Assembly (NCBI GenBank): GCA_028386065.3
Contig: JAKUCV010003299.1
Span: 1 to 64,000 of the forward strand
DNA: 64,000 nt
Source of the DNA: Turnera subulata
Taxonomy: Eukaryota; Streptophyta; Magnoliopsida; Malpighiales; Passifloraceae
Direction: 5' to 3'
In this document: positions 241 to 62,692 of the stretch, piece by piece
How positions within the stretch are numbered: position 1 is the stretch's first letter
Layout: each line of letters begins with the position of its first letter
The notes under the pieces: generated by a model
Told to the model about the DNA's origin: nothing
The model's database searches: none
The model's input: only the letters and a program-made list of their open reading frames with translations
Program-made: the position numbers and the translations under genes

Positions 241-2725
241 GAATCTCTTCTTCTCCACTTAAATATTCCATGAAGAAAATTTCAGCCTAGCATCTCCTTT
301 CCAGCCTATATTATTGTCTAATCCTTAATCAAATTGTTGTAAAGAAAAGAAAAAGAAAAGAAAGAACAAAATTAACAAAAAAACACACACATACCACTGC
401 CGCAACCTCAAGCCCCACACAACCGGCCACCACCCAGTCACCATCACCGTCGACCGCGCGCCACCACCCGCATCTCTCGCGCGCGCGGCCCTCCCTTCTC
501 CTTCCTTTTCCAACCGCCGTCGACGTAGAGCAGCCCCGAGGAGCCGTCGTCTGCAAATCGCGTGACTGGAGCCACTCGCGACGACCCGCCGACGACGCCT
601 CTCCCTCGTTCACCTCCCCCCTCGCTCGTGACGGACCGCCCAGCCTTCCTCCCCGAGCTCGCTGCACGCCTCGCCCGTCGCCATCTCGCCGCCGCCGCCG
701 CCCTGCAACTCAGGTGAGCAGCAGGTTGAAGACAACCCCTCCCCGCCCGTTTCAGCAGCCGGGTCGTGGCCGGGCTGGGTTGACCCGACGGGTCCCTGGC
801 CTGGGCTCAAACCGGATTGCTCATTCGGACCTGGGCTTCCCTTTGGGTTTTGGGCTTAGACGTTGGGCTTAAGGTGAATTGGGTTGGATTTAATTTGGGG
901 CTAAGGATTGGGCTTTGAGTTTTAAGTGTTGGGTTAGGTTTGGGTTTAGACACTGGGCTTGGGCTTGGACCTTGGCCCAGTCCGAAATAATTAAAATATA
1001 TATATATAAAAATGATAATAAAAATAAAAATAGAGGTATATATAATTCTGGTCTTATTAAAAAAAACAACATATCACTAATACAATTTTTCTGAAAATAA
1101 TGGTAAGGGTAGTATATGGTTATAATTTTGTGGAGTAAAATAGAATAATTACCTTCATATGATAATTATAAGATAATTACTAAATTGTGATAAAATTTCT
1201 TAAGGATATATAGGATATAAATGTTTTACCGGAAATATTATATGATAAATACCTTTTAAATATGTTATAATAATTACTTTTAGGAAGAAATATATACATA
1301 CAATAGCATTCGAGAAAATATTTTATGATAAGTATATTTTTGGAAAATACGGCAGAAAAGTATATACAAGGTATATAATTGTATTTGTAAGCATAAATGA
1401 AATAAAACCTTTGACACAAATTATTTTAGGAATATGTATATGGTTAATAAAAATTATTTTAGGAAGTACAAACATATAAAATAAATATGGAAAGGGTATT
1501 ATCAAAGTAATACCGGAATAATAACTAGGTATAAATACAGTATAGAATTTTGACGCAGAAATAATAAATAGTGAATGATGATGATAACGGGGTTCACTGG
1601 GACGTAACGGATCAGTTTAGTTATATTTTTACGGTATAGCATCATTTACATTTATGTGCATCCTATGTGAATATGTGCTATTATTTGCAATATAGGAGCT
1701 GATAACGAACAGCATTCCGAGGAACCGGAGCCGGGACAATTTGAGGACTTTCAGGAGTAGGAAAATCGGCCAAGGTGAGGATGGATAACCTTTGATATGT
1801 TGCACATGATACTGTGTTTGTTCTTCTGTGATTATTTTGCCTGATTGAACTGCTGAGCCAATTGAGTTTGATTGTGATATTATTGCTGTTGTGGTTGATA
1901 TATTGATTGTGGAATTATTGTTTTGATGAGATAATTGGATAATTGGAAGTTGTGTTGACGACTTATTTGCCACTAGGAAAGTAGTGGTATGACTGATAGG
2001 TTAGAGACTGTTTTGTGGTGGCTATGATCTGGTTACTTATGTTAAGCATGTCTATGCTTGGGATGTCTATCCCGTTATTATATTTTTGGGATGTCTATCC
2101 CTGGGTTACTATTTTGGGATGTCGATCCCTGGATTGATCTAGCACCCAGAACATGTTAATAACCTGGTCTGACCCCTAGCTTGTCCAGTGACAGGGCCCC
2201 GAAAGATAAAACTTGATAATATTTAAGCATTCTTTTGGTCTTGGCTCAGTTATTTATCTGGTTGTATCTTGTTATGATTTTGCTGGAATAAATGAAGCTT
2301 TCATAACACAACGGACGTATAATGACAAATAGAAAGCAGCCACTCGTGAAGCCTGAGTGGGGAGGCCTGCGGGGTTTCATCCCGTAGGATGAGTTGTTCG
2401 TAGTACAGGTCCGTGGTTCGGCCAGCCGCTGTTTCTGCTTCACCAGTCCCCGGATCCATACCTCCGCTGCATCTCATTCTAAGTCTTCCGCTACTGTTAT
2501 CTTATTTGCTGTTGTATCACGTATTGTATGCTTGACGAGATCTCGTATTGTATGTTTCTGCTACTGCTGTTGTGGTTTGAATAATGGTCCCCGGGTTCGG
2601 GTGACGGATGTTGTATTTGGGATTACGTGTACTGTATGTTATTTGTATGTACTGTCTGCTACTGTAATAAGAACAGTTCCGGCACGTGTTTACTGTGTAC
2701 GGTAAATACGGGTCGGGGCGTTTCA
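241..2725 (+). repeat. Second, 5'-incomplete copy of the same long LTR
   Basis: From about 370 this follows the order of the 16731-19903 LTR: a GC-rich leader (about 370-710), a GTGAGC splice-donor-like site right after it (713), 'TTGACCCGACGGGTC', a long AT-rich middle, the conserved CCAAGGTGAGGATGGATAA block (about 1766), repeated GGGAT-loop-ATCCC hairpins (2058-2140), the TTGTCCAGTGACAGGGCCC block (about 2180) and the terminal ACGGGTCGGGGCG with TTTCA at 2725. The first ~400 bp of the complete LTR, including its TGTAACAGCCCGG start, are absent; 241-369 does not match it. An anomalous block at 2287-2364 is listed separately. Confidence 0.75.
2287..2364. other. Block matching its homologue only as unreversed complement
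   Basis: Read as written, this stretch has no counterpart in the other LTR copies, although both flanks align well. Complementing each base without reversing order gives a sequence about 90% identical over ~75 bp to 2970-3046, including an exact 26-base run from TTCGTCGG through the CTTCGGACTCACC core. It is also close to 19509-19581. The right edge is sharp (2364/2365, just before GCCTGCGGGG). The left edge lies between about 2285 and 2290. An inversion would give the reverse complement, which does not fit. Confidence 0.8.
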
Positions 2726-3421
2726 CTAGTTCTGTGGTGTCATGGCCGGTTTGGTTTGGATATTGGGATGTTGATCCCGAATTGGTTGTTGTTGGGATGT
2801 TGATCCCGGATTGTGTTTGGCTTGGCATCCGGAATTAGTTAATAACAAGGTACGACTCTAGCTTGTCCAGTGACAGGGGCCCGGAAGATAAAATTGGTAA
2901 TAATAATAAATACTCTTTTGGTCTTAGCTCAGTTGTGTTTTGGTAGAATCTTTGTGTTGTGTTTGTCTGTGTTTACTTTGAAAGTATTATGGTTGCTTGC
3001 ATATCTCTGTTTATCCTTCGTCGGTGAGCACTTCGGACTCACCCCTCGCCTGCGGGGTTTCATCCCGTAGGTTAAGTTGTTTCGTAGTTCAGGTACGACG
3101 TTCGATGGCTGCTGCTTTATTCTCCACCTGACTCCGGATCCATATCTCCGCTGCATGTGCATATAAGACTTCCGCTACTATGTATTATATGTGTTGCTGT
3201 GATGCTGCTTTCCTGTACTACCTTTGATGATGCTGTACCATATGTGCTCTGTTGTTGTTGTTGAGGATGTGGCTTGAATAAAGGTCCCCGAGTAAGGGTG
3301 ACGATTGTATTATATGGATTGCTATTGTAAATACTTGCGAGTTGTACTGTCTGTTCTATCAATAAGAATAGTTTCGGCACGTGTTTACTGAGACGTATAA
3401 ATACGGGTCGGGGCGCTTCAC
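2726..3421 (+). repeat. Third partial LTR copy (3' portion), tandem to the previous
   Basis: It starts abruptly at CTAGTTCTGTGGTG, which corresponds to 19079 inside the solo LTR, directly after the TTTCA terminus of the previous copy. It continues through GGGATGTTGATCCC hairpins, the TTGTCCAGTGACAGGGGCC block, TCGGTGAGCACTTCGGACTC, TGCGGGGTTTCATCCCGTAGG and the terminal ACGGGTCGGGGCGCTTCA, ending at 3421. The arrangement is a head-to-tail partial duplication of an LTR 3' half, most simply from unequal recombination between copies. No internal domain separates the two. Confidence 0.75.
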
Positions 3422-9100: not shown

Positions 9101-9158
9101 CTTCTATTTCTTCTTTCTAAGAAATTACGTTCTTAGTTTTTATAATTTACAAATTAAA
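9101..9158 (+). repeat. 58-bp perfect direct repeat, copy 1
   Basis: The run starting CTTCTATTTCTTCTTTCTAA and ending AAATTAAA is identical to 9596-9653. The two copies are 437 bp apart. The spacer ends in a hAT-like terminus (TTGCCATCCCTA). Confidence 0.85.
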
Positions 9159-9595: not shown

Positions 9596-9653
9596 CTTCT
9601 ATTTCTTCTTTCTAAGAAATTACGTTCTTAGTTTTTATAATTTACAAATTAAA
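9596..9653 (+). repeat. 58-bp perfect direct repeat, copy 2
   Basis: Identical to 9101-9158. The right flank diverges immediately (ATAGCTAGCC versus CTTATTATAA). Confidence 0.85.
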
Positions 9654-10164
9654 ATAGCTAGCCTTTTTTTTCTGTCCAAAAATATGGAAAATAACTAGAC
9701 ATATTACTCACGATTTTTGGTTGTAGATATCAAAGAAAGGTACTTACAAGTTCAAAGTTCAAACTACTCAAGGAACCAAATGGAACCGTAAATCCTACGA
9801 GAAGTTTATGTGAAGTAATATGATCTAACTATACTTAGTATGTTCACAGAAAAAGGGTATACTATATCTATATATGAAAACCAAACTGTAAGTCTCCGTT
9901 TTTTCTCCTAATAATATGTAAATAAAAGATTTGAAATTATAAGCTGTCAGGTCTGTATCATTTAATAGTCCTAATTATTGTTTAATATTTCTAATATAAA
10001 TTATCGCCCCCATTATGAAGATATGCTTTCCATCTTATTCAATGGAATCATATAGCATTTGAATTTTCAACACAATAGTCACTATACATCATCCTTTTTG
10101 AGAATTGAAGTTGACTGTCATTCAAGTGGAAGAGGGTATTGTCTATTACATCTGCGTTTGCAAT

Positions 10165-10359
10165 TGTTAGCACAGTGTGTGTCTTTGATTCAAATACGTT
10201 GTAATATGAGATAGGAGTGAGTGTAGTATTGTAGTAGGGTTAGACTTCTGCACAGGTTAGTTTCCTGATGCTTTGTACTTGTTGTGATATGTCTATAAAA
10301 TACACCTGAGGCATCACGGTTGAGGTGTGCCTGATAAACCCTAAACATACTGTTCTTTA
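10165..10359 (+). repeat. 5' LTR of copia element 1
   Basis: 195 bp, identical to 14802-14996. It contains a TATAAAATA promoter-like box at about 10292-10300. Confidence 0.95.
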
Positions 10360-10442
10360 TGGTAGCGGAGCTGCAAGCTTAACCGCATACACCCAAAAAA
10401 AAAAAAGAAAGGAGAGATTACACTAGGTCCTTTTTTTTTTCC

Positions 10443-11048
10443 ATGGCAAGCACTGATGCCCATTCCACCGGCTCTGTCACCGGTTTCACTTCTAGTGCTC
10501 CATCCGCTTCAACTATGGCTGGGCATGTTATGTCCTCTGCGAATGCTGTCCTTGCTGCCGCCCCCGTTCAAACCCTCAGCAACTCTCATCACGCCGTTTC
10601 CATCCAGTTAACACATACCAACTATGTGTTTTGGCGGGCTCAAATGGAGCCCTTTCTTGCAGGACAGGGAGTCTTAGGCTATGTCAAGGGCACGGTGCCC
10701 TGCCCTCCTGCCACTCTCATATCGGCTGCTGGTGAGATTCAACCCAACCCAGCCTATGCTTCGTGGATTCAACAGGATCAAGCGATCCTTAGTTGCATCA
10801 ACTCCTCTATTTCTGTTGCTGTTTTCCCGAATATTGTTGGTAAACAGACGTCGAAGGCGGCTTGGGATGCTCTTGAGTCATCCCTTGCCTCTCCTAATCA
10901 AGCACGACGCATGGCTCTTCACTCGGCTCTCCAGCAAATCAGCGTTGAGGGCCTACTCGGACAGTACGTTATGTACTTAGCGCGGTTCGTTAATAGCCTA
11001 CTCAACCGACGCTCACCAGTTCGCCATAGACAACAACTAAAAGTCTAA
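10443..11048 (+). pseudogene. copia element 1 gag, N-terminal part, interrupted
   Basis: Starts at ATG 10443, 83 bp after the left LTR. The first ~170 residues are a normal copia Gag: a low-complexity Ser/Ala leader, then a retrotran_gag/UBN2-type region with the 'LTHTNYVFWRAQMEPFL' motif, and 'AAWDALESSLASPNQARRM' leading to 'LHSALQQISVEG'. From about 10953 the reading turns into unrelated residues and stops at TAA 11046. Further in-frame stops follow at 11052, 11055, 11091 and 11094. The pol frame starting at 11097 is in the same frame (difference 690 nt), so the ancestral frame was one gag-pol polyprotein. The break is not a frameshift or point mutation but the complemented block listed next. 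Confidence 0.85.
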
Positions 11049-11105
11049 ACATAATAAGCACCAAATAACGGACTAAATTTCTGTAAACGATGATGACAAT
11101 CGGCT
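10953..11105. other. Block of gag present as unreversed complement
   Basis: Complementing each base in place, without reversal, removes all five in-frame stops (11046, 11052, 11055, 11091, 11094). It keeps the frame with both flanks and yields a recognisable copia Gag helix region, with fragments such as RAKQLSDELAASG and an IIRGL motif, running directly into RPEPLDFAELQG. Neither the written strand nor the reverse complement does this. The edges are uncertain by a few bases (left 10951-10961, right 11102-11107). Length is about 150 bp. Confidence 0.85.
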
Positions 11106-14100
11106 AGGCCGGAACCTCTTGATTTTGCTGAGTTGCAGGGTGCCTTAATGAGCTATGAGTTTATGCACAATGATCCACTCACTGCTCTATCTCTTAAATC
11201 ACCCGCCTCTACTGATCCACCGAAGGAGACTATGCCTATGCATGCCCCGACGGCTAACATTGCTCAGCGTCAACAGTTCCCTCCACAGCAGCGTGGGGGA
11301 GGAGGCCGGGGTCGTCGTGGCCGGGGCCGAAACTCCAACACCTACAATCAGCCTCGACAGGCCTATGACAATCGCCAGTCTCGTGGGTTTGACTCAAATC
11401 GACCTCGGTGTCAAATTTGTAATAAGGTTGGCCATATTGCTACGACATGCTATCAACGTCATGCTTCTTCTCCAGCCGCAAACACAGTCTCTTCTCCTTC
11501 CTACTCACCATCCGCATGGCTTCCTGATACGGGGGCAAGTCACCATGTGACTCCTGATCAATATAGTCTCTCCAATTACTCAGAATATCCCAGCCATGAT
11601 TCTGTTCAAGTTGGCAACGGTCATGACTTGTCTGTCTCAGGTGTTGGTAATTCACGACTCTCTACTCCTACCCGACCTCTTTTCATTAAAAATGCATTAC
11701 ATGTCCCTGCTATCACTAGATCATTACTTTCTGTTCAACAGTTTGCAATTGATAACAACGTGTTCTTTGAGTTTCATCCTGATAATTTCTTTGTGAAGGA
11801 TCGAACTACCAAGAAAACACTCCTTACCGGCAGGAGTAGTGGCGGTTTGTATGTGTTTGAACCCGCAGCTCCTCAAGCTTTGTTCACCACTGCTGGCACC
11901 GAGGATCTGTGGCACCGTCGGCTCGGTCATCCCCATGCACAAGTCCAGAATCAAATTCTTTCCAGTATAGGCGTCTCTTCTTCGCGTCCGTCTATGTGTC
12001 TGTCATGTCCTCTTGGCAAGTCTAGTCGTTTGCATTTACCTGCTTCCTCTCATCGTTCCAAGAACCCTTTAGATTTATTGTTTAGTGATGTTTGGGGACC
12101 CTCTCCCTATCCTGGTATTGATGGGTCCAAATACTATGTTGTCTTTCTAGATGATTTTAGTAAACATATATGGTTTTATTCGATAAAACGAAAATCTGAT
12201 GTTTATGAGGTGTTTAAACAATTTCAAGTTGAGGTTGAACGTCAGTTTCAAACCAAAATAAAAGCTATCCAAACTGATTGGGGAGGTGAATATCGATCCC
12301 TACATAAGCTACTTCGTTCATGTGGTATAATTCATCGCTTGCAATGTCCTCACACTCATGAGCAGAATGGCTCCATTGAGAGACGTCATCGCCACATTGT
12401 GGAGACAGGTTTAACTCTCATGGCACTTGCCAAGCTTCCCTTTTCTTACTGGCATTATGCCTTTGATACTGCAGTCTTTCTTATTAACCATATGCCCACT
12501 CGCATTCTTGGAAATAAGTCTCCTTATGAAGTTGTTCACTCTCACCCCCCTGATTATCGCTTCTTGCGAGTCTTTGGTTCTTTATGTTATCCACATCTTC
12601 GTCCATACAATCGTCACAAATTAGACTTTAGGTCCTCACCATGTATTTTTCTTGGATACAGTATTTCTCACCATGGGTATAGGTGTATGGACCTTACAAC
12701 AAAACGGCTATATATCGCCCGTCATGTTAGGTTCTTTGAGCATATTTTTCCCTTCCAGGTCACGGCACCCGCGTTACCACAACCACCAAGACAAGCAGAT
12801 CAATGGGTCACGGTGCCTTTGACAGTATTTTTCCCCAACACGGGTTCAACACTGCCAGCTGCCACCACTTCTACGCCAACACCAACCTCCTCCAGGTTAG
12901 CACCAGATTCCAGTTTCTCTTCCTCTACCTCACCTATGACTCCATCTTCTACTACTCCTTTATCTTCTCCCCATCCCACGTCTTCTACTCCAATCTTATC
13001 CCAATCCGATCAGTCCTCACCTAGTTCGACTACACCAACTCGACTTGTTTCACGACGTGTTGTCTCTCCACTCCCTGGATTGAATATTGACTCTATCTCC
13101 TCTTTGCCCACAACTTCCTCCTCTTCCACGGTATCTGCCCACCCTGATTCTCCACCCGCTAATACTCCACCACGTAGAATGACTCTTAGACCTAATCCCA
13201 AACCTGTCACCCGATACTCACCTTCTAATTATCTTACTCATGTGACACCACCAACCACTGAGCCGACAAGTTTTACCGAAGCTAACAAGAGCAAAGTCTG
13301 GCGGGATGCTATGCAGGATGAGTTTAATGCTTTGCTTCGGAACAATACTTGGAAATTGGTTCCCTACGATAAGAACATGAACATTGTCGGGAACAAGTGG
13401 GTTTTTCGGATAAAGCGACACGCAAATGGAGAGATAGAGCGCTACAAGGCGCGCCTTGTCGCTAAGGGTTTTCATCAAAGAGAGGGAGTGGACTACTCTG
13501 AGATTTTCAGTCCTGTGGTAAAGCCAACAACAATTCGTGTTGTTCTTGGCCATGCAATCTCCAAACGATGGGTGGTTCATCAACTTGACGTTCGCAATGC
13601 TTTCTTGCATGGAGTTTTAGATGAGGAGGTGTACATGGCTCAGCCCCAGGGTTTTCTTGCTCGTGATAAACCTACTCATGTTTGTCGATTACTTAAATCT
13701 TTATATGGTTTAAAACAGGCTCCCAGGGCCTGGTATAAACGGCTGAGTGATTATCTTGTCTTGTGTGGCTTCACTATATCTCGGGCAGATTCTTCTCTAT
13801 TGATTTATAATCATGGGGCTGTCACGGCTTATATTCTTGTGTATGTCGATGACATTCTGATCACTGGTAACAACTCTCACTTTGTTCAGCAGCTAATGGC
13901 TCGTCTTGGTGCTGAATTCTCTCTTCGCAATCTCGGGCGGATGCAGTTTTTCTTGGGTTTGGAAGCTCATTATGTTGCAGACGGTGTTATACTCACTCAA
14001 ACAAAATACATCACAGATTTGCTTCGTAAAATGGGCATGTTGGATTGTAAGCCTGTCCAGACCCCAGCTTCCACTTCAAAGAAGCTACGCTCCTCGGATG

Positions 14101-14807
14101 ATGATGACTTCCCAGACCCCACACAATATCGACAAATCGTGGGTTCTCTGCAGTACTTGGCTCTTACGCGGCCGGATATAGTTCATGCAGTAGGGCGAGT
14201 AAGTCAGTTCATGCATCAACCTCAGAATGATCTTTATGTTGCGGTCAAAAGGATCTTGCGGTACTTGAAGCACACGCTGACTATGGGTCTTCATCTTCGA
14301 CATCACTCATCATCTTCATTGACTGTTTACACGGATGCCGATTGGGGTGGCAATCCGGATGATAGACGCTCAACAGGTGGTTATCTTGTTTTCCTAGGCC
14401 GCAATCTTGTCTCTTGGGCTTCGAGGAAACAAAGAACAGTTGCACGGTCCTCCACAGAAGCCGAATACAAGGCTCTTGCAGACGGAAGTGCAGAGCTGCT
14501 GTGGGTTACCTCTCTTCTTGCTGAGTTAGGAATTGGTCATGATGTTCCAGTGTTGTGGTGTGATAACATTGGTGCTACCTATCTTAGTCACAATCCGGTG
14601 CAACACCTGCGCACCAAGCATGTTGAACTTGATTACCATTTTGTGCAGGAGCAGGTGGCACGGAAAAAGCTACGCATTCAGTTTGTTCATAGTGAAGGGC
14701 AGCTTGCGGATGTGCTCACCAAACCACTCTCTTTAGCACAGTTTCAACGACTTCGAGACAAACTCAACCTCAGCTACACCCCGGTTTCGTTTGTGGGGGA
14801 GTGTTAG
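11097..14807 (+). CDS. copia element 1 pol polyprotein (with gag C-terminus)
   Basis: Open from 11097 to TAG 14805-14807; that stop falls inside the 3' LTR. Domains in order: the gag end with a Gly/Arg-rich stretch and CCHC knuckle (CQICNKVGHIATTCYQRH, about 11407-11460); aspartic protease (WLPDTGASHHV); GAG-pre-integrase (LWHRRLGHP); integrase core with D in FSDVWG and FLDDFS, and the E of HEQNGSIERRHR; reverse transcriptase (RYKARLVAKGFHQ, YGLKQAPRAWY, catalytic YVDDILITG); RNase H (VYTDADWGG, STEAEYKALADG). The order integrase before RT defines copia. A Ser/Thr/Pro-rich linker separates integrase and RT (about 12780-13200). One residue is odd: the integrase motif reads QTDWGGEY where N or G is usual after D. 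All catalytic motifs are otherwise intact. Confidence 0.93.
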   Translation, partial: QSARPEPLDFAELQGALMSYEFMHNDPLTALSLKSPASTDPPKETMPMHAPTANIAQRQQFPPQQRGGGGRGRRGRGRNSNTYNQPRQAYDNRQSRGFDSNRPRCQICNKVGHIATTCYQRHASSPAANTVSSPSYSPSAWLPDTGASHHVTPDQYSLSNYSEYPSHDSVQVGNGHDLSVSGVGNSRLSTPTRPLFIKNALHVPAITRSLLSVQQFAIDNNVFFEFHPDNFFVKDRTTKKTLLTGRSSGGLYVFEPAAPQALFTTAGTEDLWHRRLGHPHAQVQNQILSSIGVSSSRPSMCLSCPLGKSSRLHLPASSHRSKNPLDLLFSDVWGPSPYPGIDGSKYYVVFLDDFSKHIWFYSIKRKSDVYEVFKQFQVEVERQFQTKIKAIQTDWGGEYRSLHKLLRSCGIIHRLQCPHTHEQNGSIERRHRHIVETGLTLMALAKLPFSYWHYAFDTAVFLINHMPTRILGNKSPYEVVHSHPPDYRFLRVFGSLCYPHLRPYNRHKLDFRSSPCIFLGYSISHHGYRCMDLTTKRLYIARHVRFFEHIFPFQVTAPALPQPPRQADQWVTVPLTVFFPNTGSTLPAATTSTPTPTSSRLAPDSSFSSSTSPMTPSSTTPLSSPHPTSSTPILSQSDQSSPSSTTPTRLVSRRVVSPLPGLNIDSISSLPTTSSSSTVSAHPDSPPANTPPRRMTLRPNPKPVTRYSPSNYLTHVTPPTTEPTSFTEANKSKVWRDAMQDEFNALLRNNTWKLVPYDKNMNIVGNKWVFRIKRHANGEIERYKARLVAKGFHQREGVDYSEIFSPVVKPTTIRVVLGHAISKRWVVHQLDVRNAFLHGVLDEEVYMAQPQGFLARDKPTHVCRLLKSLYGLKQAPRAWYKRLSDYLVLCGFTISRADSSLLIYNHGAVTAYILVYVDDILITGNNSHFVQQLMARLGAEFSLRNLGRMQFFLGLEAHYVADGVILTQTKYITDLLRKMGMLDCKPVQTPASTSKKLRSSDDDDFPDPTQYRQIVGSLQYLALTRPDIVHAVGRVSQFMHQPQNDLYVAVKRILRYLKHTLTMGLHLRHHSSSSLTVYTDADWGGNPDDRRSTGGYLVFLGRNLVSWASRKQRTVARSSTEAEYKALADGSAELLWVTSLLAELGIGHDVPVLWCDNIGATYLSHNPVQHLRTKHVELDYHFVQEQVARKKLRIQFVHSEGQLADVLTKPLSLAQFQRLRDKLNLSYTPVSFVGEC

Positions 14808-14996
14808 CACAGTGTGTGTCTTTGATTCAAATACGTTGTAATATGAGATAGGAGTGAGTGTAGTATTGTAGTAGGGTTAGACTTCTGCACAGGTTAGTTT
14901 CCTGATGCTTTGTACTTGTTGTGATATGTCTATAAAATACACCTGAGGCATCACGGTTGAGGTGTGCCTGATAAACCCTAAACATACTGTTCTTTA
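14802..14996 (+). repeat. 3' LTR of copia element 1
   Basis: Identical to the 5' LTR. It is preceded by the polypurine tract and followed by the TSD GCAAT. Confidence 0.95.
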
Positions 14997-15001
14997 GCAA
15001 T

Positions 15002-16730: not shown

Positions 16731-19700
16731 TGTAACAGCCCGGGAAAAATTTGGATTTTTACCGAGACTGTAGAAATTGTTTTACCATGATTTACTATTG
16801 AATTAATCTCGGGTAATTAATTCGAAGTAAATCGGTAGTCGTTTTTCGAAACCGAGAGTTTTCCCGCGCTCGTGATTTTCCCGTTGATTTTTCGGGACTA
16901 AGTTGATATTTTTCGAGTTTCGGAATTTCTCGGAAAAACACACCGGGAAATAACTACGGGGTATCGATTAATTTCTGGCCCGATTCGGACACGGCCCTGC
17001 ATAATGGAGCCGCCTCAATTATGCAGGGCGGCGTCTTCTTTTTCTGTGCTACCCGTGTTCATTTCCTGTGTAACCCGTGATGCTCACCTGTGATTTTCTT
17101 AATTTCTGCCTGCAATCATTCTCTCAATCTTCACCTTCCAGCAAAAAAAAAAAAAAAAAACAAACAACAACACCAAGGCACAAACCAGAAACAAATAAAA
17201 CAACCGTTCCATCCCCTTCCTTCCTCCTCACAGCCAGCGCGTCGTCAGCTCCTCCCCTCCTCTCCCCTGCTTCCTTTTTCCCCGTGAGCACTGCCGCCGT
17301 GAACCACACAGCCGCGACACGGACCAACCTCGCAACGCTCCTTTCTCACCACCACGCGCGACCATTTTCTCGCGCCGTCACCTCCTTGCTCCTTCGAGAT
17401 CACCGCTGCATCTGCTAGGAGACGCTGCCGGTCGAGCGAACTCGATAGAGCAAGCCGTCACCGACTGCTGCTAGCGCCCGCCTGCACACCGAACACAACC
17501 GCCCTCGCTATCGCCGTCGACCATGACCACGCCACGCCATCGTCGTTCAGCTCGCTGCTCCCTGCAGTCACCGCCACGCCTCCACCGCCACGCAACGCCG
17601 AGGACGAGTTCGTCTCTGCCTCGAACTGTCCGCGCCGCCGGCAGCAAAAACCCGACGAGCCGCCTTCCTTCCTCGTCCTCCCCGCCTCGATGCAACTCTG
17701 CCACTGGCCTCGCTGCTCGCTTGTCTTGCCGCCGTCAGCCACTGCACCCGTGAAACACCGGGTTGAGGGTGAGTAACCCGATTAAGTGACCGGGTCATGG
17801 CCACGGGTCGGGTTGACCCAAGGGCTTGGATGGGTTTTTAGGGCTGTGATCATGGGCTGGATGCTTGAATGGGCTGGTGGTAATGTTGGCTAGGCTGTGG
17901 GCTTTGGTTTGGTCCAGACCTTAGTCCAAGCATGCACTATGACATGGCCCAGTCCAATTAAAAAAAAAAAACATAATTAATATCTGAAAAAAAATATATA
18001 ATTTACATAAATCATATTTTTGGAAAAAAATAATAAAATTATGTGAGTATATTCCCTAGGAAAAAAATAAATATATGTTATATGATTTTAAGGGAAATAA
18101 TGATCTTGGCATATTATTATTTTAGATAAATTAAGGTAATTATGTTATGGATATATTAATAATAATGTGGTGATTATGAGTTATAGTATTTTGGAAAATA
18201 TATATATGAAATATATGAACATGTTTTACTTGAAAAAAATAAATAAATAAAAAGATAACACTAATATAATTTTGAGAAAATGTAATTATAATATGATTTT
18301 CCTTTGAAAAATTATTATAAGAGTAAATAATTTTAGGAAATGGGTATAAATACTATGAAAATGTTTGGAAATAAATATGGTATTGTATATTCTGAGGAAT
18401 ATTTCACTAAGTATATATAATAATATATTTTTGAAAAAAAATAAAATAAATAATAATATTTGGTAATTATATTTTGGCAAGTATAATAATTTTATGGAGA
18501 AGATAACGTATAACCGAGGGGGGTTTAATTTATACTTTATGGCATCATAGTATACCGATTATGTGCATTTATGTGAGTACATGTTAGTTGTGGTATAGGT
18601 TTGGATATCGGGCAGTTTCCCGAGGAGCCGGCGTCGGACCGGGCATTGTTTCCGGAGTTGAGTAATCGGCCAAGGTGAGGATGGATAAACCCTGATATGT
18701 GCCCGTAATGCTGTGTGTGTCTTCTTGTTGTTTGTGTACTTTTACTGTTGTTTGATCTGCTGGAATGTTTGTTGGCTGTTACTTGATTGATATGAAATTG
18801 TTAATGCTGTTGTAGAACGTGCTAGTCCTGTGTATGTTGTGTTGGAAATATTATTGAACGGTTTGATATTGTTGAATTGTTTGATGTGAAAGTTTGGTGA
18901 TATGAAATTGTTGGCTGGATTGTGATATTGGTTCTTGGATGATGTGTTGAGAATGATATTGGATTATTGATTGTGGATAATTGGGAAAAGGATAACGAAA
19001 ATTGGAATGGAAATTGGAATTGAATTGAGATGATGTAATTGTCACTTGGAAAGTAGTGGTACGACTAGATGGTTAGAGACTAGTTCTGTGGTGCCTTGCC
19101 AGAGGGTTTGTTGGTTGGGGGTGTTGACCCCGGATTTGTGATATTGGGATGTTGATCCCGGATTTGAGATATTGGGATGTTGATCCCGGATTTGTGATAT
19201 GGGGATGTTGATCCCGGATTGTGGTGGGGCCTGGCATCCAGAATTAGTTAATAACCAGGTACGACCCTAGCTTGTCCAGTGACGGGGCCCGGAAGATAAA
19301 AATTGGTAATAAAAACTAATAAGTAATCTTTGGGTCTTGGTTCAGTATTGAATATGACGTGCTTGATATGACTTAGTAGATTCCTCTGTCGTGTTGCTTG
19401 TGTTGGTTTCTTCTGTTGTGTTGTTTGAGTTGTATTCCACTGTTATGCTGTTTGTGATAGTTACCTTGTGATGTGAGGGTTTGCTTATTGTTGTGATGGT
19501 TGTTTTACTTCGAAAGTGTTATGGTTGAATATATCACTGTTTATCTTTCGTCGGTGAGCGCTTCGGACTCACCCCTCGCCTGCGGGGTTTCATCCCGTAG
19601 GATGAGTTGTTTTAGTGCAGGAACGTACCGGGCGAGCTGATGCGTACCCTTGGACAGGCTTGGATCCATAGATTGCTTGTGTCGCATACAGTGTCTATGT

Positions 19701-49553: not shown

Positions 49554-50033
49554 TTAAAATTCAAGACCATGTTCCCGTGCAGCATCAGCCAGGGCTTGCA
49601 CACGTCCATGGTAAAGGTATCCGCCTCGGTCAAATGCCACCTTAGTTATACCTTTTTCCAAACATGTTTTTGCAATGATTTCGCCAATCTTCTTAGCTAC
49701 TTCTATGGTTGGACCAGAAGTGTAGTCAAACTCCTCACACATAGGTTTCTGCATGGTTGAAGCTGAAGCAAGCGTGTGCATCTGTGTGTCATCAATCACC
49801 TGGACATAAAGATGCTTGTTGGACCGAAAGACAGACAACCTTGGTCTCTCTGGCGTACCTTGAATCTTCTTTCTGATTCGAACATGGCGGGCAGTCCTAT
49901 TTTCTTGCCTAGTTTTGGCTTTGGCTTCAATTATCATAATATTTGGCCTTGGCCTAGGCATTGCTGGTGCCGGTGCCCATGTTTGCTGCCCACATCCAAA
50001 AAACCCACTCCAAAGTGAAGTAGCACTTGCCAT
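49554..50033 (-). CDS. 50S ribosomal protein L18, plastid (uL18c)
   Basis: A single coding exon of 159 residues. The first ~35 residues are Ser/Ala/Pro-rich with few acidic residues, consistent with a chloroplast transit peptide. The mature part is bacterial-type uL18: [37 protein letters not shown], then [52 protein letters not shown]18 binds 5S rRNA in the large subunit; here it would act in the plastid ribosome. The start codon lies 6 bp inside an exon that begins right after an acceptor (TTTTTGACAG at 50040-50049), so there is a 5' UTR intron. The donor CTGAG/GTAGGT at 50950/50949 gives an intron of 910 bp. Confidence 0.95.
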
Positions 50034-57807: not shown

Positions 57808-60800
57808 CTACTCCCCCTCATTTTGACCTCCCTTGATGTCACGAAGTCGTCGCATGCCAATCTTCCTTATCAACTTCTCAAAAATTAAAGTAGGCAGTGA
57901 TTTTGTAAATAGGTCTGCCAAATTGTCACTTGAGCGAATCTATTGAACACAAATATCACCATTCTTCTGGAGATCATGAGTGAAAAAGAATTTTGGTGAT
58001 ATGTGCTTTGTCCGGTCGCCTTTGATGTATCCTTCCTTTAATTGGGCAATGCAGGCAGCATTATCTTCATAAATGATTATTGGAACATCTTTCCCACTAT
58101 CCAATCCACAAGAATCTCGAATATGTTGTGTCATTGATCTTAGCCAAACACACTCTCGACTAGCTTCATGTATGGCTACAATTTCTGCATTATTTGAAGA
58201 GGTGGCAACAATACTTTGCTTTGTGGATCGCCACGATATAGCTGTTCCTCCATAAGTAAACAAGTAGCCTGTTTGTGACCGAGCCTTATGTGGATCAGAC
58301 AAATAACCTGCATCTGCATAACCAATTAGATCGGGTTTGGACCCGGATGAATAAAATAATCCCATATCTATTGTACCCCGAAGATATCGAAAAATTTGTT
58401 TTATCCCATTCCAATGTCTGCGAGTTGGGGCAGAACTATATCTTGCGAGTAAACTGACAGCAAAAGAAATATCAGGTCTTGTATTAGTAGCAAGATACAT
58501 TAAAGCTCCAATCGCACTGAGATATGGTACTTCCGGACCAAGAATCTCTTCAATATCTTCTCGAGGTCTGAAAATATCTTTCTTTTGATCAAGCGACCTC
58601 ACAACCATCGGGGTACTTATTGGATGCGCTTTGTCCATATAAAATCTTTTCAGTACCTTCTCGGTATAATGTGTCTGATGGACAAAGATTCCATTTTCTA
58701 AATGTGCAATTTGAAGACCTAGACAGAGTTTTGTCTTTCCAAGGTCTTTCATCTCAAATTCTTTCTTTAAACAATGCACGGCTTTGGAAACTTCTTCAGG
58801 AGTTCCAATAATATTTAAATCATCAACATAAACAGCAATGATGACATATTCATGCATGGACCTTTTAATAAAAACACATGGACATATGGAAATTCAGGGA
58901 CTCTCATGTATATATCATGGCTTATAGGTCCATAGAGATAGGCTGTAACAACATCCATTAGACGCATTTCTAATTTTTCATGTACTGCCAGACTAATTAG
59001 ATACCGAAAAGTTGTTGCATCCACCACAGGGGAGTATGTCTCCTCATAATCAATACCAGGTCGTTGGGTAAAACCTTGTGCGACAAACCGTACTTTATAT
59101 CTCACTATTTCATTTTTCTCATTTCTTTTCCGCACAAATACCCATTTGTAACCGACCGGTTTTACACCATCAGGTGTTGGGACTACAGGCCCAAAAACTT
59201 CTCGCTTCATGAGCGAGTCTAACTCAGCCTTAATTGTGTCTCTCCATTTTGGCCAATCATTTCTGTGCCGGCATTCATCAATTGATTTAGGCTCATGATC
59301 CTCATTTCCTTCCATAATATTTAGCGCTACATTATATGCAAAAATTCTGTCGACGGTTATTTCACGTCGGTTCCATCTTGTTCCTGACATAATATAGTTG
59401 ATTGAGATCTCATCGTTTTGACTTATTTCAGGTACCTGAGTTACTTCTGGAACATTACAATTTATGTCAGGATCCTCTTCTAGAGGATTATCAATTTGAA
59501 CCTCTGCAGGAGGTTTTATTACCTTGTTGGGGCCATCTTGTATCTTTACTCCTTTTCTCTGTCGAGGATTTTTATCTTTGAAACCGAGTGGTCTGCCACG
59601 CTTCTGGCGTGCTTTAGATTCATTTGCAATCTTTAGTTGTCCTTCGGGGACATCAATTCTAGCAGGAGCATTTGCAGCTGGTACATGAGATTTGGTCACT
59701 CTATTGATATCAGTAAAAGCGTCTGGCAATTGATTTGCTATATTTTGCAAATGAATTATCTTTTGAACTTCAAGTTCACACTGATTTGTTCGAGGATCAA
59801 GACTTGATAATGACATAGCATTCCATTTAATTTCTTTATCCAGCTGCTTATTTTCTCCCCCTAATGTTGGATAAATATTTTCATCAAAATGACAATCAGC
59901 AAATCTTGCTGTAAATAAATCTCCAGTTGTTGCTTCCAAATATTTTATAATTAATGGAGATTCATATCCAACATATATTCCCAATCTTCTTTGAGGACCC
60001 ATTTTAGTTCGCTGTGGTGGAGCAATTGGCACATATACTGCACAACCAAAGGTCCGAAGATGGGAGATATTAGGTTCGTGACCATGAACCAATTGAATGG
60101 GAGAGAGCTTATGATAGCTTGTTGGCCTGATGCGTACAAGTGCTGCTGCATGCAAAATAGCATGTCCCCAAGCAGTAACGGGGAGTTTGCATCTCATCAG
60201 TAATGGCCTCGCAATCAACTGAAGGCGTTTAATCAACGATTCTGCTAGACCGTTTTGGGTATGAACATGAGCTACAGGATGTTCAACCATAATTCCAATT
60301 GACATACAATAGTCATTAAACGTCTTAGAGGTGAATTCAGCAGCATTATCAAGACGTATAGTCTTAATTGCATGATCAGGGAAGTGTGCCCGCAATTTGA
60401 TAAATTGTGATAATAAACGTGCAAATGTCAAATTGCGTGAGGACAACAGGCACACATGGGACCATCTAGTTGATGCATCAATTAAAACCATAAAATATCT
60501 AAATGGTCCATACGGTGGATGTATAGGTCGACAAATATCTCCCTGAATTCTTTCTAAAAATGCTGGTGATTCAGAACCAACCTTATCATATGAAGGCCGG
60601 ATAATTAATTTTTCTTGTGAACAAGCAGCACATGAAAATTCATTAGATTGAAAAATCTTCTGGATTTTCAATGGATGACCAAATGAATTTTCAATAATTC
60701 GGCGCATCATTATTGATCCGGGATGGCCCAACCGGTCATGCCAAATTTTTAACTCATTAGTCAGCTTCAGGCTGGTGCCAGCTTCTGGCTGGGTATAATA

Positions 60801-61226
60801 ATTTTCAATGACTCGAATATTTGTGTAGTACAATCCAGAAGATAATACATGTAATTTTTCCAGAACTTGTTTGTTACCTGTAGTGGTAATTTTTGTAATA
60901 TAGAGATATTCAGCATCTCTTTCATTCATTGTCTCAATATGATATCCATTTAAACGGATATCCTTAAAACTCAACAGATTTCTTTGAGACTTTGAAGAGA
61001 ACAAAGCATTTTCAATGATTATCTTTGTTCCCTTTGGTAGTAGAATTTGAGCTCTTCCGGAGCCTTCAATTATTTTTGTACTACCAGAGATTGTACTAAC
61101 ATATGTCTTTTCAAATTTCAAAGTAAAGAAATATTTCCGTTCATTAAATACGGAATGAGTAGTTGCACTGTCTGCTAGACAGATATCTGAGTCATTGTTC
61201 TTGGAACCGTATAGTTGAATGTCCAT
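57808..61226 (-). pseudogene. copia element 2 pol, broken
   Basis: Protease ICLADSATTHSVF (about 61175-61130), GAG-pre-integrase IWHDRLGHP, integrase with D residues in IQGDIC and RLDNAAEF and E in HTQNGLAESLIKR, then RT up to DVVTAYLYGPISHDIYMRVPE (about 58905). Here a deletion has removed roughly 55-60 residues, including the expected YGLKQ-type segment, and shifted the frame. The remainder resumes about 58875 with CPCVFIKRS leading to YVDDLNIIG (catalytic). RNase H follows (GYADAGYLSDP, TSSNNAEIVA). TAG at 57942-57940 interrupts just before the C-terminal IRSSDNLADLFTKSLP motif; the ancestral stop is at 57810-57808. Without the deleted RT palm segment the enzyme cannot be functional. Confidence 0.9.
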
Positions 61227-61371
61227 ATCTTCATAAAAGAAAATAAAAGATGCATAAGAAAGTAATACTGAACTGAAATTTATTCCAAATTAAAAGAACA
61301 TTAAGAACATTAATATAAATAAACAACAGATAAGAACATAAATGTAAAATACAAAGAAATAGACAATAAGA

Positions 61372-62427
61372 TTATTCTTGCTTCATTTTCTTGCTTGCTT
61401 CTTCTGGATCAGCAAGATAATCATCAATATCAAGATATGAGTCGGACTGGAAGGCAGCATCTTGGTCATCATTTTGAACAAAATTTGTTTCAACAGCCTT
61501 ATTTTTGGCTTTCAAAGATGATTGATAAAGTTCCACCAAATGCTTTGCTGTACGACATACCCGTGACCAATGACCTGTCATGCCACACCGATAGCAGACT
61601 GTCTCGTGATTTTTCTTATCATGATCTTTGGCATCATTCGTATATTTTCCTTTAGCCTTGCCAATATTGCGGTCACGGGAATTAAAATTGTTCCTTCCAC
61701 GTCCACGCCCACGTCCCCGGCCACGACCTTTTCCACGACCACGACCAGAATTATCATGCACTGCTGCATTCGCTTCTGGGAATGGAGCAGAAGCAGTGGG
61801 ACGAGACTCATGATTTTTCATCAATAGCTCGTTATTTTGTTCGGCCACCAGAAGGCAAGAAATTAAATCAGAATATCTGGTGAAACCTTTTTCACGATAC
61901 TACTGCTGCAGGAGCACATTGGATGCATGAAAAGTAGAGAATGTTTTCTCTAACATATCCATATCAGTAATATTTTCTCCACATAGTTTCAGCTGAGAGC
62001 TGATTCGAAACACAACTGAATTATATTCATGCACAGAATTGAAATCTTGTAACCTCAGGTGCATCCACTCATAACGAGCTTTTGGGAGTATGACCATCTT
62101 CAGGTGATCATACCTTTCTTTCAAATTATTCCAAAGATCTGCTGGATCTTTGACAGTAAGATATTCCGTCTTTAGACTATCGTGAAGATGGTGACGAAGA
62201 AAAATTATGGGTTTTGCCTTATCTTGACTAGATGCATCTTTTGCTTTTTCTTGACTAGTCCCTTCTTTATTTTGAATAGATACGGCTTTTCCCTTATCTT
62301 GAGGGGATTTTATGGTATGCCCCAGGCCCTGAGCATCTAAATGCATTTCTGCATCTAGTCTCCATGATAGATAATTTCTTCCGGAAATATCTAGGGCCTC
62401 AAACTCAAGCTTTGCAAGGTTTGCCAT
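61372..62427 (-). pseudogene. copia element 2 gag, one nonsense codon
   Basis: ATG at 62427 (MANLAKLEFEALDISGRNYLSW) begins a Gag with the UBN2-like segment DPADLWNNLKERYDHLK. TAG at 61902-61900 interrupts after VLLQQ. The same frame continues YREKGF...LLVAEQNNELL, an RGRGKGRGRGRGRGR nucleic-acid-binding stretch and a CCHC knuckle CYRCGMTGHWSRVC (about 61600-61560), ending at 61372. CAG to TAG is the simplest origin of the stop. Upstream residues in frame before 62427 are not Gag-like, so this start was chosen. A 145-nt gap separates gag from pol, which lies in another frame. Confidence 0.88.
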
Positions 62428-62692
62428 TATAACAGTAAAGAAATAATAACAAAATATAAAACAAATATAAAGAGAAATAATAATAGAAATTATATAGTAT
62501 ATACGCTTACTCGATAAATCTTTCAGCAATATTAATAGGATAATAATATAGAATAGAATATATATATGCTTACTCGATAAATCTTTCAGCTATATTAATA
62601 CTATATATGTGTAATAGAAAATGATTAAAGTAGTAATAAGAAAAGGTTTAGAAATGATTACCTTGATAAGGTAGAGACTAGTGCTGATAACG

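What the first reader, a model, noticed from the sequence alone, without database searches (positions are those of the whole stretch)
10953..11105. ~150 bp of a young copia gag is base-complemented without reversal
Seen: five in-frame stops cluster here while both flanks stay in the same frame and read as normal Gag. Replacing each base by its complement, keeping left-to-right order, removes every stop, preserves the frame and yields typical Gag residues (for example RAKQLSDELAASG) joining into RPEPLDFAELQG. Known: DNA inversion produces the reverse complement. No described mutational or recombination process gives a parallel complement. The element's LTRs are identical, so natural decay is also unlikely. 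Inference: assembly or data artefact, or deliberate edit; if real, it would be an unprecedented rearrangement.
Basis: partly seen in the sequence, partly recalled or inferred. Interest (0 to 1): 0.97.

Follow-up and report, generated by a model that had tools for sequence, protein, structure and literature searches.

The report
Complemented patches in a plant assembly
A 158-base stretch inside a plant jumping gene is written letter for letter as its complement without being turned round, and because the same genome assembly holds at least two more such patches it is most likely an assembly error rather than real DNA.

Summary
After complementing it matches 158 of 158 bases in C6776 and C4409 and 154 of 158 in C5478. 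Of 48 base-exchange and reversal combinations tried against C4409, only A<->T plus C<->G without reversal fits (158; next 92). Searching the 518.7-Mb assembly with the stretch as written found the window alone.

It is not the only one. Of 7 answered searches of the same assembly with complemented copia pieces, 2 found further patches, in other elements and scaffolds: C1023:321341-321495 (155 bases) and C3248:306683-306780 (98 bases); both have sharp edges and normal flanks. In C4409 an N run ends exactly at the base where the window patch begins. Best explanation: an assembly step, likely gap filling, that complemented a repeat fragment without reversing it. An edit of this window alone is disfavoured; real "swinger" polymerisation is not excluded but very unlikely. 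No reads were available; they would settle it.

The parts
10942..11099 (.). 158-base parallel-complement patch (complemented, not reversed) inside gag
   Evidence: 158/158 against C6776 and C4409, 154/158 against C5478 after complementing; edges sharp to one base; rule unique among 48 combinations; as written found only here
10443..10941 (+). normal 5' part of gag (copia type), left of the patch
   Evidence: PF14223 and PF14244 above cut-off for 10443-10940; 14 differences in 499 to C5478
11100..11400 (+). normal gag sequence right of the patch
   Evidence: of 301 bases, 7 differ from C5478, 5 from C6776, 4 from C4409
11133..14807 (+). open frame from 3' gag through integrase towards reverse transcriptase
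   Evidence: ORF of 1224 aa; Pol_BBD, rve and SH3_retrovirus above cut-off in pieces of it; protease and reverse transcriptase seen by eye only, not scanned
10165..10359 (+). 5' LTR, 195 bp
   Evidence: identical to 14802-14996
14802..14996 (+). 3' LTR, 195 bp
   Evidence: identical to 10165-10359
10160..10164 (+). target-site duplication GCAAT, left
   Evidence: read
14997..15001 (+). target-site duplication GCAAT, right
   Evidence: read

Best explanation
Window 10942-11099 is a 158-base patch of a copia gag gene written as its same-direction complement, most likely put there by an assembly step (gap filling or contig joining) that complemented a repeat fragment without also reversing it. 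Shown: the patch, its exact edges, that a whole-assembly search finds it as written only here, and two more patches of the same kind (155 and 98 bases) in other scaffolds of the same assembly. Inferred: that the plant's DNA carries the ordinary sequence here; that the patch came from a repeat fragment used to close a gap; and that only half of a reverse-complement operation was carried out. A known way to get this is calling a string-reverse in the wrong context in a script (recalled, from no call).
For: Exact rule and sharp edges: 158/158 with one of 48 exchange/reversal combinations, next best 92. Recurrence in the same assembly. C1023:321341-321495: of 155 bases, after complementing, 140, 136, 127, 127 and 94 agree with five siblings (the 94 case is shifted by an indel), against 6, 5, 7, 7 and 25 as is. 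C3248:306683-306780: 93/98 after complementing, flanks 98/100 and 78/80 as is. 2 of 7 complemented decoys that were answered found such a place (hits; none: 41, 77, 89, 98, 109). Assembly signs: the N run C4409:1-2902 ends exactly where the patch begins in that copy; a 32-base C run lies 92 bases from the C1023 patch. Source hint, weak: the patch has 0 differences from C6776 where the flanks have 23 mismatches in 1071 aligned bases, a chance of about 0.03. Outside control: a complemented 1000-base piece of 16S rRNA has no match in the collection of 5426 complete E. coli genomes, where the same piece as is has 37580 places in 5375 genomes. Chemistry (established knowledge, no call): recombination and inversion keep 5'-3' polarity and give a reverse complement, never a parallel complement.
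Against: No reads and no assembly description were available, so no program or step is shown to be at fault. The window holds no N, so a filled gap there is inferred. The N-run coincidence is seen for one patch only: the near-identical sibling of the C1023 patch (C4838) runs into Ns at query 344|345, about 100 bases before the patch edge 445|446, and siblings of the C3248 patch were never returned. Long C or G runs are a weak sign: the one in the C3248 locus (24 bases) is about 1.4 kb from the patch, and L065, in which I looked for no patch beyond one search's matches, has a 17-base G run. The source hint weakens to about 0.12 (hand estimate) if C4409's right flank alone, 4 differences in 301, is the yardstick. 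Five of seven answered decoys found nothing. Among the papers listed I recognised none that reports such an artefact.
Confidence: 0.87

Rival explanations
1. A deliberate or accidental edit of this one record after assembly, for example a planted test or a copy-paste through a sequence editor set to 'complement'.
For: A clean, exact, single-block change with one-base edges is just what an edit leaves. The window and the stretches of C2999 returned by the genome tools are the same letters (L001, L034 overlap), so an edit upstream of both would look like this.
Against: Two more patches of different length lie in scaffolds C1023 and C3248, in other elements and with scattered substitutions relative to siblings; an editor would have had to alter other places that nobody was pointed to.
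Confidence: 0.08
2. Real DNA made by a polymerase that exchanged A<->T and C<->G over 158 bases ('swinger' polymerisation in Seligmann's sense), perhaps during reverse transcription of the retrotransposon, then inserted.
For: The rule, the length above 100 bases and the abrupt switch to regular sequence agree with what that author describes (PMC4942731). All three patches lie in copia-like elements, and the host element looks young.
Against: All seven answered decoys were copia pieces, so finding the patches in copia is built in. No accepted enzymology copies DNA in parallel (established knowledge). No such sequence was found in 5426 complete E. coli genomes that hold 37580 copies of the piece as is (this gene is under strong selection). 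The N-run coincidence points to assembly.
Confidence: 0.02
3. An ordinary inversion, a diverged segment or decay read too hopefully.
For: Five stops in a coding frame are what decay or inversion would also give.
Against: The reverse complement agrees at 30 of 153 bases in register with C5478 and with C4409, and at its best placement either strand of the stretch as written reaches 65 of 158 in the 29 other loci, while the parallel complement is exact at 158 of 158 in two copies.
Confidence: 0.005

Closest known systems
'Swinger DNA', rule A<->T + C<->G (Seligmann; PMC4942731, PMC7027195)
   Same: Same base rule, no reversal, more than 100 bases for two of three patches, abrupt switches to regular sequence; reported from public records (passages; section 1.1)
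   Different: Claimed there as a product of polymerases; here the recurrence within one draft assembly, the N-run coincidence and the repeat setting point to software. Half of a reverse complement would give exactly this one rule out of 23, the only one that author had reported for DNA by 2016
Gap-filling and contig-orientation errors of draft assemblies
   Same: Wrong sequence placed inside repeats with sharp ends
   Different: Usual orientation errors give reverse complements (recalled); these patches are complemented only
'Parallel PCR' (Bhardwaj and Sharma, PMC4304224)
   Same: Claims copying in parallel direction (abstract and outline only)
   Different: An in-vitro claim with parallel-binding primers; nothing in the abstract on genomes
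Ty1/copia LTR retrotransposon
   Same: The host element has identical LTRs, a 5-bp target duplication, copia gag and integrase domains
   Different: Its gag is interrupted by the patch

Membership tests
Swinger DNA (A<->T + C<->G) | Whole stretch follows one base-exchange rule without reversal | tested here: met
   158/158; next best of 48 combinations 92; 140/155 and 93/98 for the other two patches against their nearest tested relatives
Swinger DNA (A<->T + C<->G) | Abrupt switch to regular sequence at the ends | tested here: met
   One-base-sharp edges at 10941|10942 and 11099|11100
Swinger DNA (A<->T + C<->G) | Made by a polymerase, so present in the DNA molecules themselves | not testable with these tools
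   No reads at hand
Assembly artefact | Recurs in the same assembly at unrelated places | tested here: met
   C1023 155 bases and C3248 98 bases; 2 of 7 answered decoys
Assembly artefact | Ends coincide with assembly breaks | tested here: inconclusive
   Met for the left edge of the window patch in sibling C4409; not met for the C1023 patch in its sibling C4838; not tested for C3248
Assembly artefact | Absent from raw reads | not testable with these tools
   No reads at hand
DNA inversion | Segment equals the reverse complement of the ancestral form | tested here: not met
   30 of 153 in register with C5478 and with C4409; at most 65 of 158 at any placement in the 29 other loci
Ty1/copia LTR retrotransposon (host element) | LTR pair with target-site duplication | tested here: met
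   195 bp identical, GCAAT
Ty1/copia LTR retrotransposon (host element) | copia gag and integrase upstream of reverse transcriptase | tested here: inconclusive
   PF14223, PF22936, PF00665 and PF25597 above cut-off, in that order; the reverse transcriptase region was not scanned

The most novel reading that the evidence does not exclude
The patches are in the plant's DNA: retrotransposon copying now and then lays down 100-160 bases in parallel complement, giving recurrent A<->T / C<->G blocks with sharp ends in copia elements, a form of template copying outside known enzymology.
Probability: 0.02. Interest if true: 0.98.

Novelty: not a real feature. Interest (0 to 1): 0.33.

Why it matters
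It shows that a draft assembly can carry complement-only patches that break genes and escape ordinary similarity searches, since neither strand matches (skips the patch in every copy listed). It also offers a plain account for the 'swinger DNA' reports: skipping half of a reverse complement yields exactly the one rule, A<->T plus C<->G, that had been reported for DNA by 2016. Searching assemblies with complemented repeats is a cheap test for both.

Tried and rejected
The patch as written has no homologue in the assembly beyond the window. A first look suggested that the C1023 copy had its own patch at the same gag position as the window; base-level alignment showed that copy is normal there and the match was the window's own patch seen in mirror, so it was dropped. 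Naming the plant: chloroplast L18 in the window is at best 77% identical to Jatropha among the 120 of 7995 hits listed, and of 17 papers listed by assembly size none is recognisably this plant by title. Literature on complement-only assembly errors: searches (10 of 74137 listed; 0 papers; 25 of 80 listed; 8 of 8; 4 of 4) showed none that reports it by title or abstract start; none of these was opened for that question. A k-mer scan of the window and the loci held by then for other parallel-complement matches gave the known patch and two short self-matches of 31 and 24 bases in the window that I did not examine; a protein-level scan of 8 window frames against 236,526 complemented bases gave nothing.

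Full report
Observation. The window holds a copia-type LTR retrotransposon at 10165-14996: two identical 195-bp LTRs, a 5-bp target duplication GCAAT on both sides, gag and integrase domains. Its gag frame has five stops at 11046, 11052, 11055, 11091 and 11094. For the isolated stretch 10953-11105 only one of 12 readings, the complement without reversal in the gag frame, is free of stops.

Exact extent. The window's own assembly (G000, 518.7 Mb, 7125 contigs; the window is C2999:1-64000) holds many relatives of this element; one search scored 40 of 289 candidates and listed 71 matches. Aligned base by base to C5478, the window agrees (but for scattered differences) up to 10941, is the complement from 10942 to 11099, and agrees again from 11100. 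After complementing, the 158 bases agree 158/158 with C6776 and C4409 and 154/158 with C5478. One search gave 30 loci; leaving out the window and three second loci of the same copies (L005, L006, L029), 26 distinct copies remain, of which 25 hold the stretch in the ordinary form (106 to 158 of 158), none as written, and one, L025, in neither form. Searching the whole assembly with the stretch as written found the window alone. Of all 24 base exchanges with and without reversal, only A<->T + C<->G without reversal fits (158; next 92). A sibling Gag protein from C5478 matches the complemented window across the patch, E 2e-29.

Is it unique? I searched the same assembly with complemented pieces of copia elements. 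Seven such decoys were answered. Five found nothing (the tool notes that an empty answer without a known positive shows nothing). Two found new places. C1023, at the start of the integrase core by its position; with siblings the patch is C1023:321341-321495, 155 bases. After complementing it agrees at 140, 136, 127, 127 and 94 bases with five siblings (C2361, C3882, C3380, C5046 and C6501, the last shifted by an indel), and at 6, 5, 7, 7 and 25 as is; its flanks are ordinary. C3248:306683-306780, 98 bases, 93/98 to the window's second copia element after complementing, flanks 98/100 and 78/80; it lies in the pol frame of that element, in what I read by eye as integrase. Thus the same assembly has at least three parallel-complement patches, of 158, 155 and 98 bases, in three different elements and scaffolds.

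Signs of assembly. In C4409, one of the two copies identical to the complemented patch, an N run (1-2902) ends at exactly the base before the one that corresponds to the patch's first base. For a copy of about 1.4 kb (the length of the C6776 copy) a chance hit on one of two edges would be of the order of 0.1% (my estimate, made after the fact). Ns can also mark stretches that the operators withhold (tool text), so this run need not be an assembly gap. Of 19 other scaffold starts sampled, 5 begin with at least 400 Ns. A 32-base C run lies 92 bases from the C1023 patch; a 24-base C run in the C3248 locus is about 1.4 kb from its patch, and a 17-base G run occurs in L065 as well, so such runs are weak evidence. 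The patch has no difference from C6776 although the flanks have 23 mismatches in 1071 aligned bases; the chance of none in 158 is about 0.03, or about 0.12 by hand from C4409's right flank alone (4 in 301): a weak hint that the fragment came from another copy. Against: the nearest sibling of the C1023 patch, C4838, runs into Ns about 100 bases before the patch edge, not at it, and the window has no N.

Outside control. A complemented 1000-base piece of E. coli 16S rRNA has no megablast match in the collection of 5426 complete E. coli genomes; the piece as is has 37580 places in 5375 of them. The gene is under strong selection and megablast needs 28 identical bases, so this speaks only to finished sequence in general.

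How it most likely arose. Polynucleotide strands keep 5'-3' polarity in every known recombination, inversion or template switch, so the product is the same strand or its reverse complement (established knowledge). A parallel complement is what a program writes when it complements a string and fails to reverse it, or, seen from the other strand, reverses it and fails to complement. I therefore think that a gap-filling or contig-joining step placed repeat fragments of 98 to 158 bases with half of the reverse-complement done. Shown: the patches, their rule, their edges, their recurrence. Inferred: the step and the ordinary state of the plant's DNA.

Compared with what is known. Seligmann describes 'swinger' sequences made by systematic base exchange; for DNA he reports only the rule A<->T + C<->G, in nuclear and mitochondrial genes, and says only he describes them so (PMC4942731: passages, section 1.1). 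Warthi, Fournier and Seligmann apply the idea to ESTs and name artefact as a possibility (PMC7027195, passages). I know of no independent acceptance of it (recalled). The present patches resemble that class in form, but the assembly evidence argues for software. That DNA shows only this one of 23 rules is itself what half-done reverse complementing predicts (inference). A claim of parallel PCR exists (PMC4304224, abstract and outline). Among the papers listed I recognised no report of complement-only assembly patches.

Verdict. The finding is real as a sequence observation and very probably not a feature of the genome. It is worth reporting to the assembly's owners and is a useful test case for the swinger claims.

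Noticed in passing
L031 (C4409:1-9000), base 2902/2903: A scaffold that begins with 2902 Ns, whose end falls exactly at the position of the window patch's left edge in that element copy.
   Followed up: partly
L041, L043, L045, L052, L057 (scaffold starts): 5 of 19 sampled scaffolds begin with at least 400 Ns, odd for a deposited assembly; Ns may also mark stretches withheld by the operators.
   Followed up: no
L059:1378-1409 and L071:102-125: C runs of 32 and 24 bases, 92 bases and about 1.4 kb from the second and third patches, looking like sequencing or assembly faults.
   Followed up: no
L032 and L031 (C6776, C4409): Short copies in which gag runs straight into an LTR, lacking most of pol, joined at nearly the same place; likely a non-autonomous lineage of this element.
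   Followed up: no
window 57940-62529, - strand: A second copia-type element in several open frames; a relative of it in C3248 carries the third patch.
   Followed up: partly
window 9101-9158 and 9596-9653: A 58-bp exact direct repeat, start-to-start spacing 495 bases.
   Followed up: no
window 2334-2364 with 3017-3047, and 2323-2346 with 19536-19559: Short parallel-complement self-matches within the window, possibly simple sequence (ranges as seeded).
   Followed up: no
window 49554-50033, - strand: Chloroplast ribosomal protein L18 gene, best match 77% to Jatropha curcas, then other Euphorbiaceae; no listed hit is close enough to name the species.
   Followed up: partly
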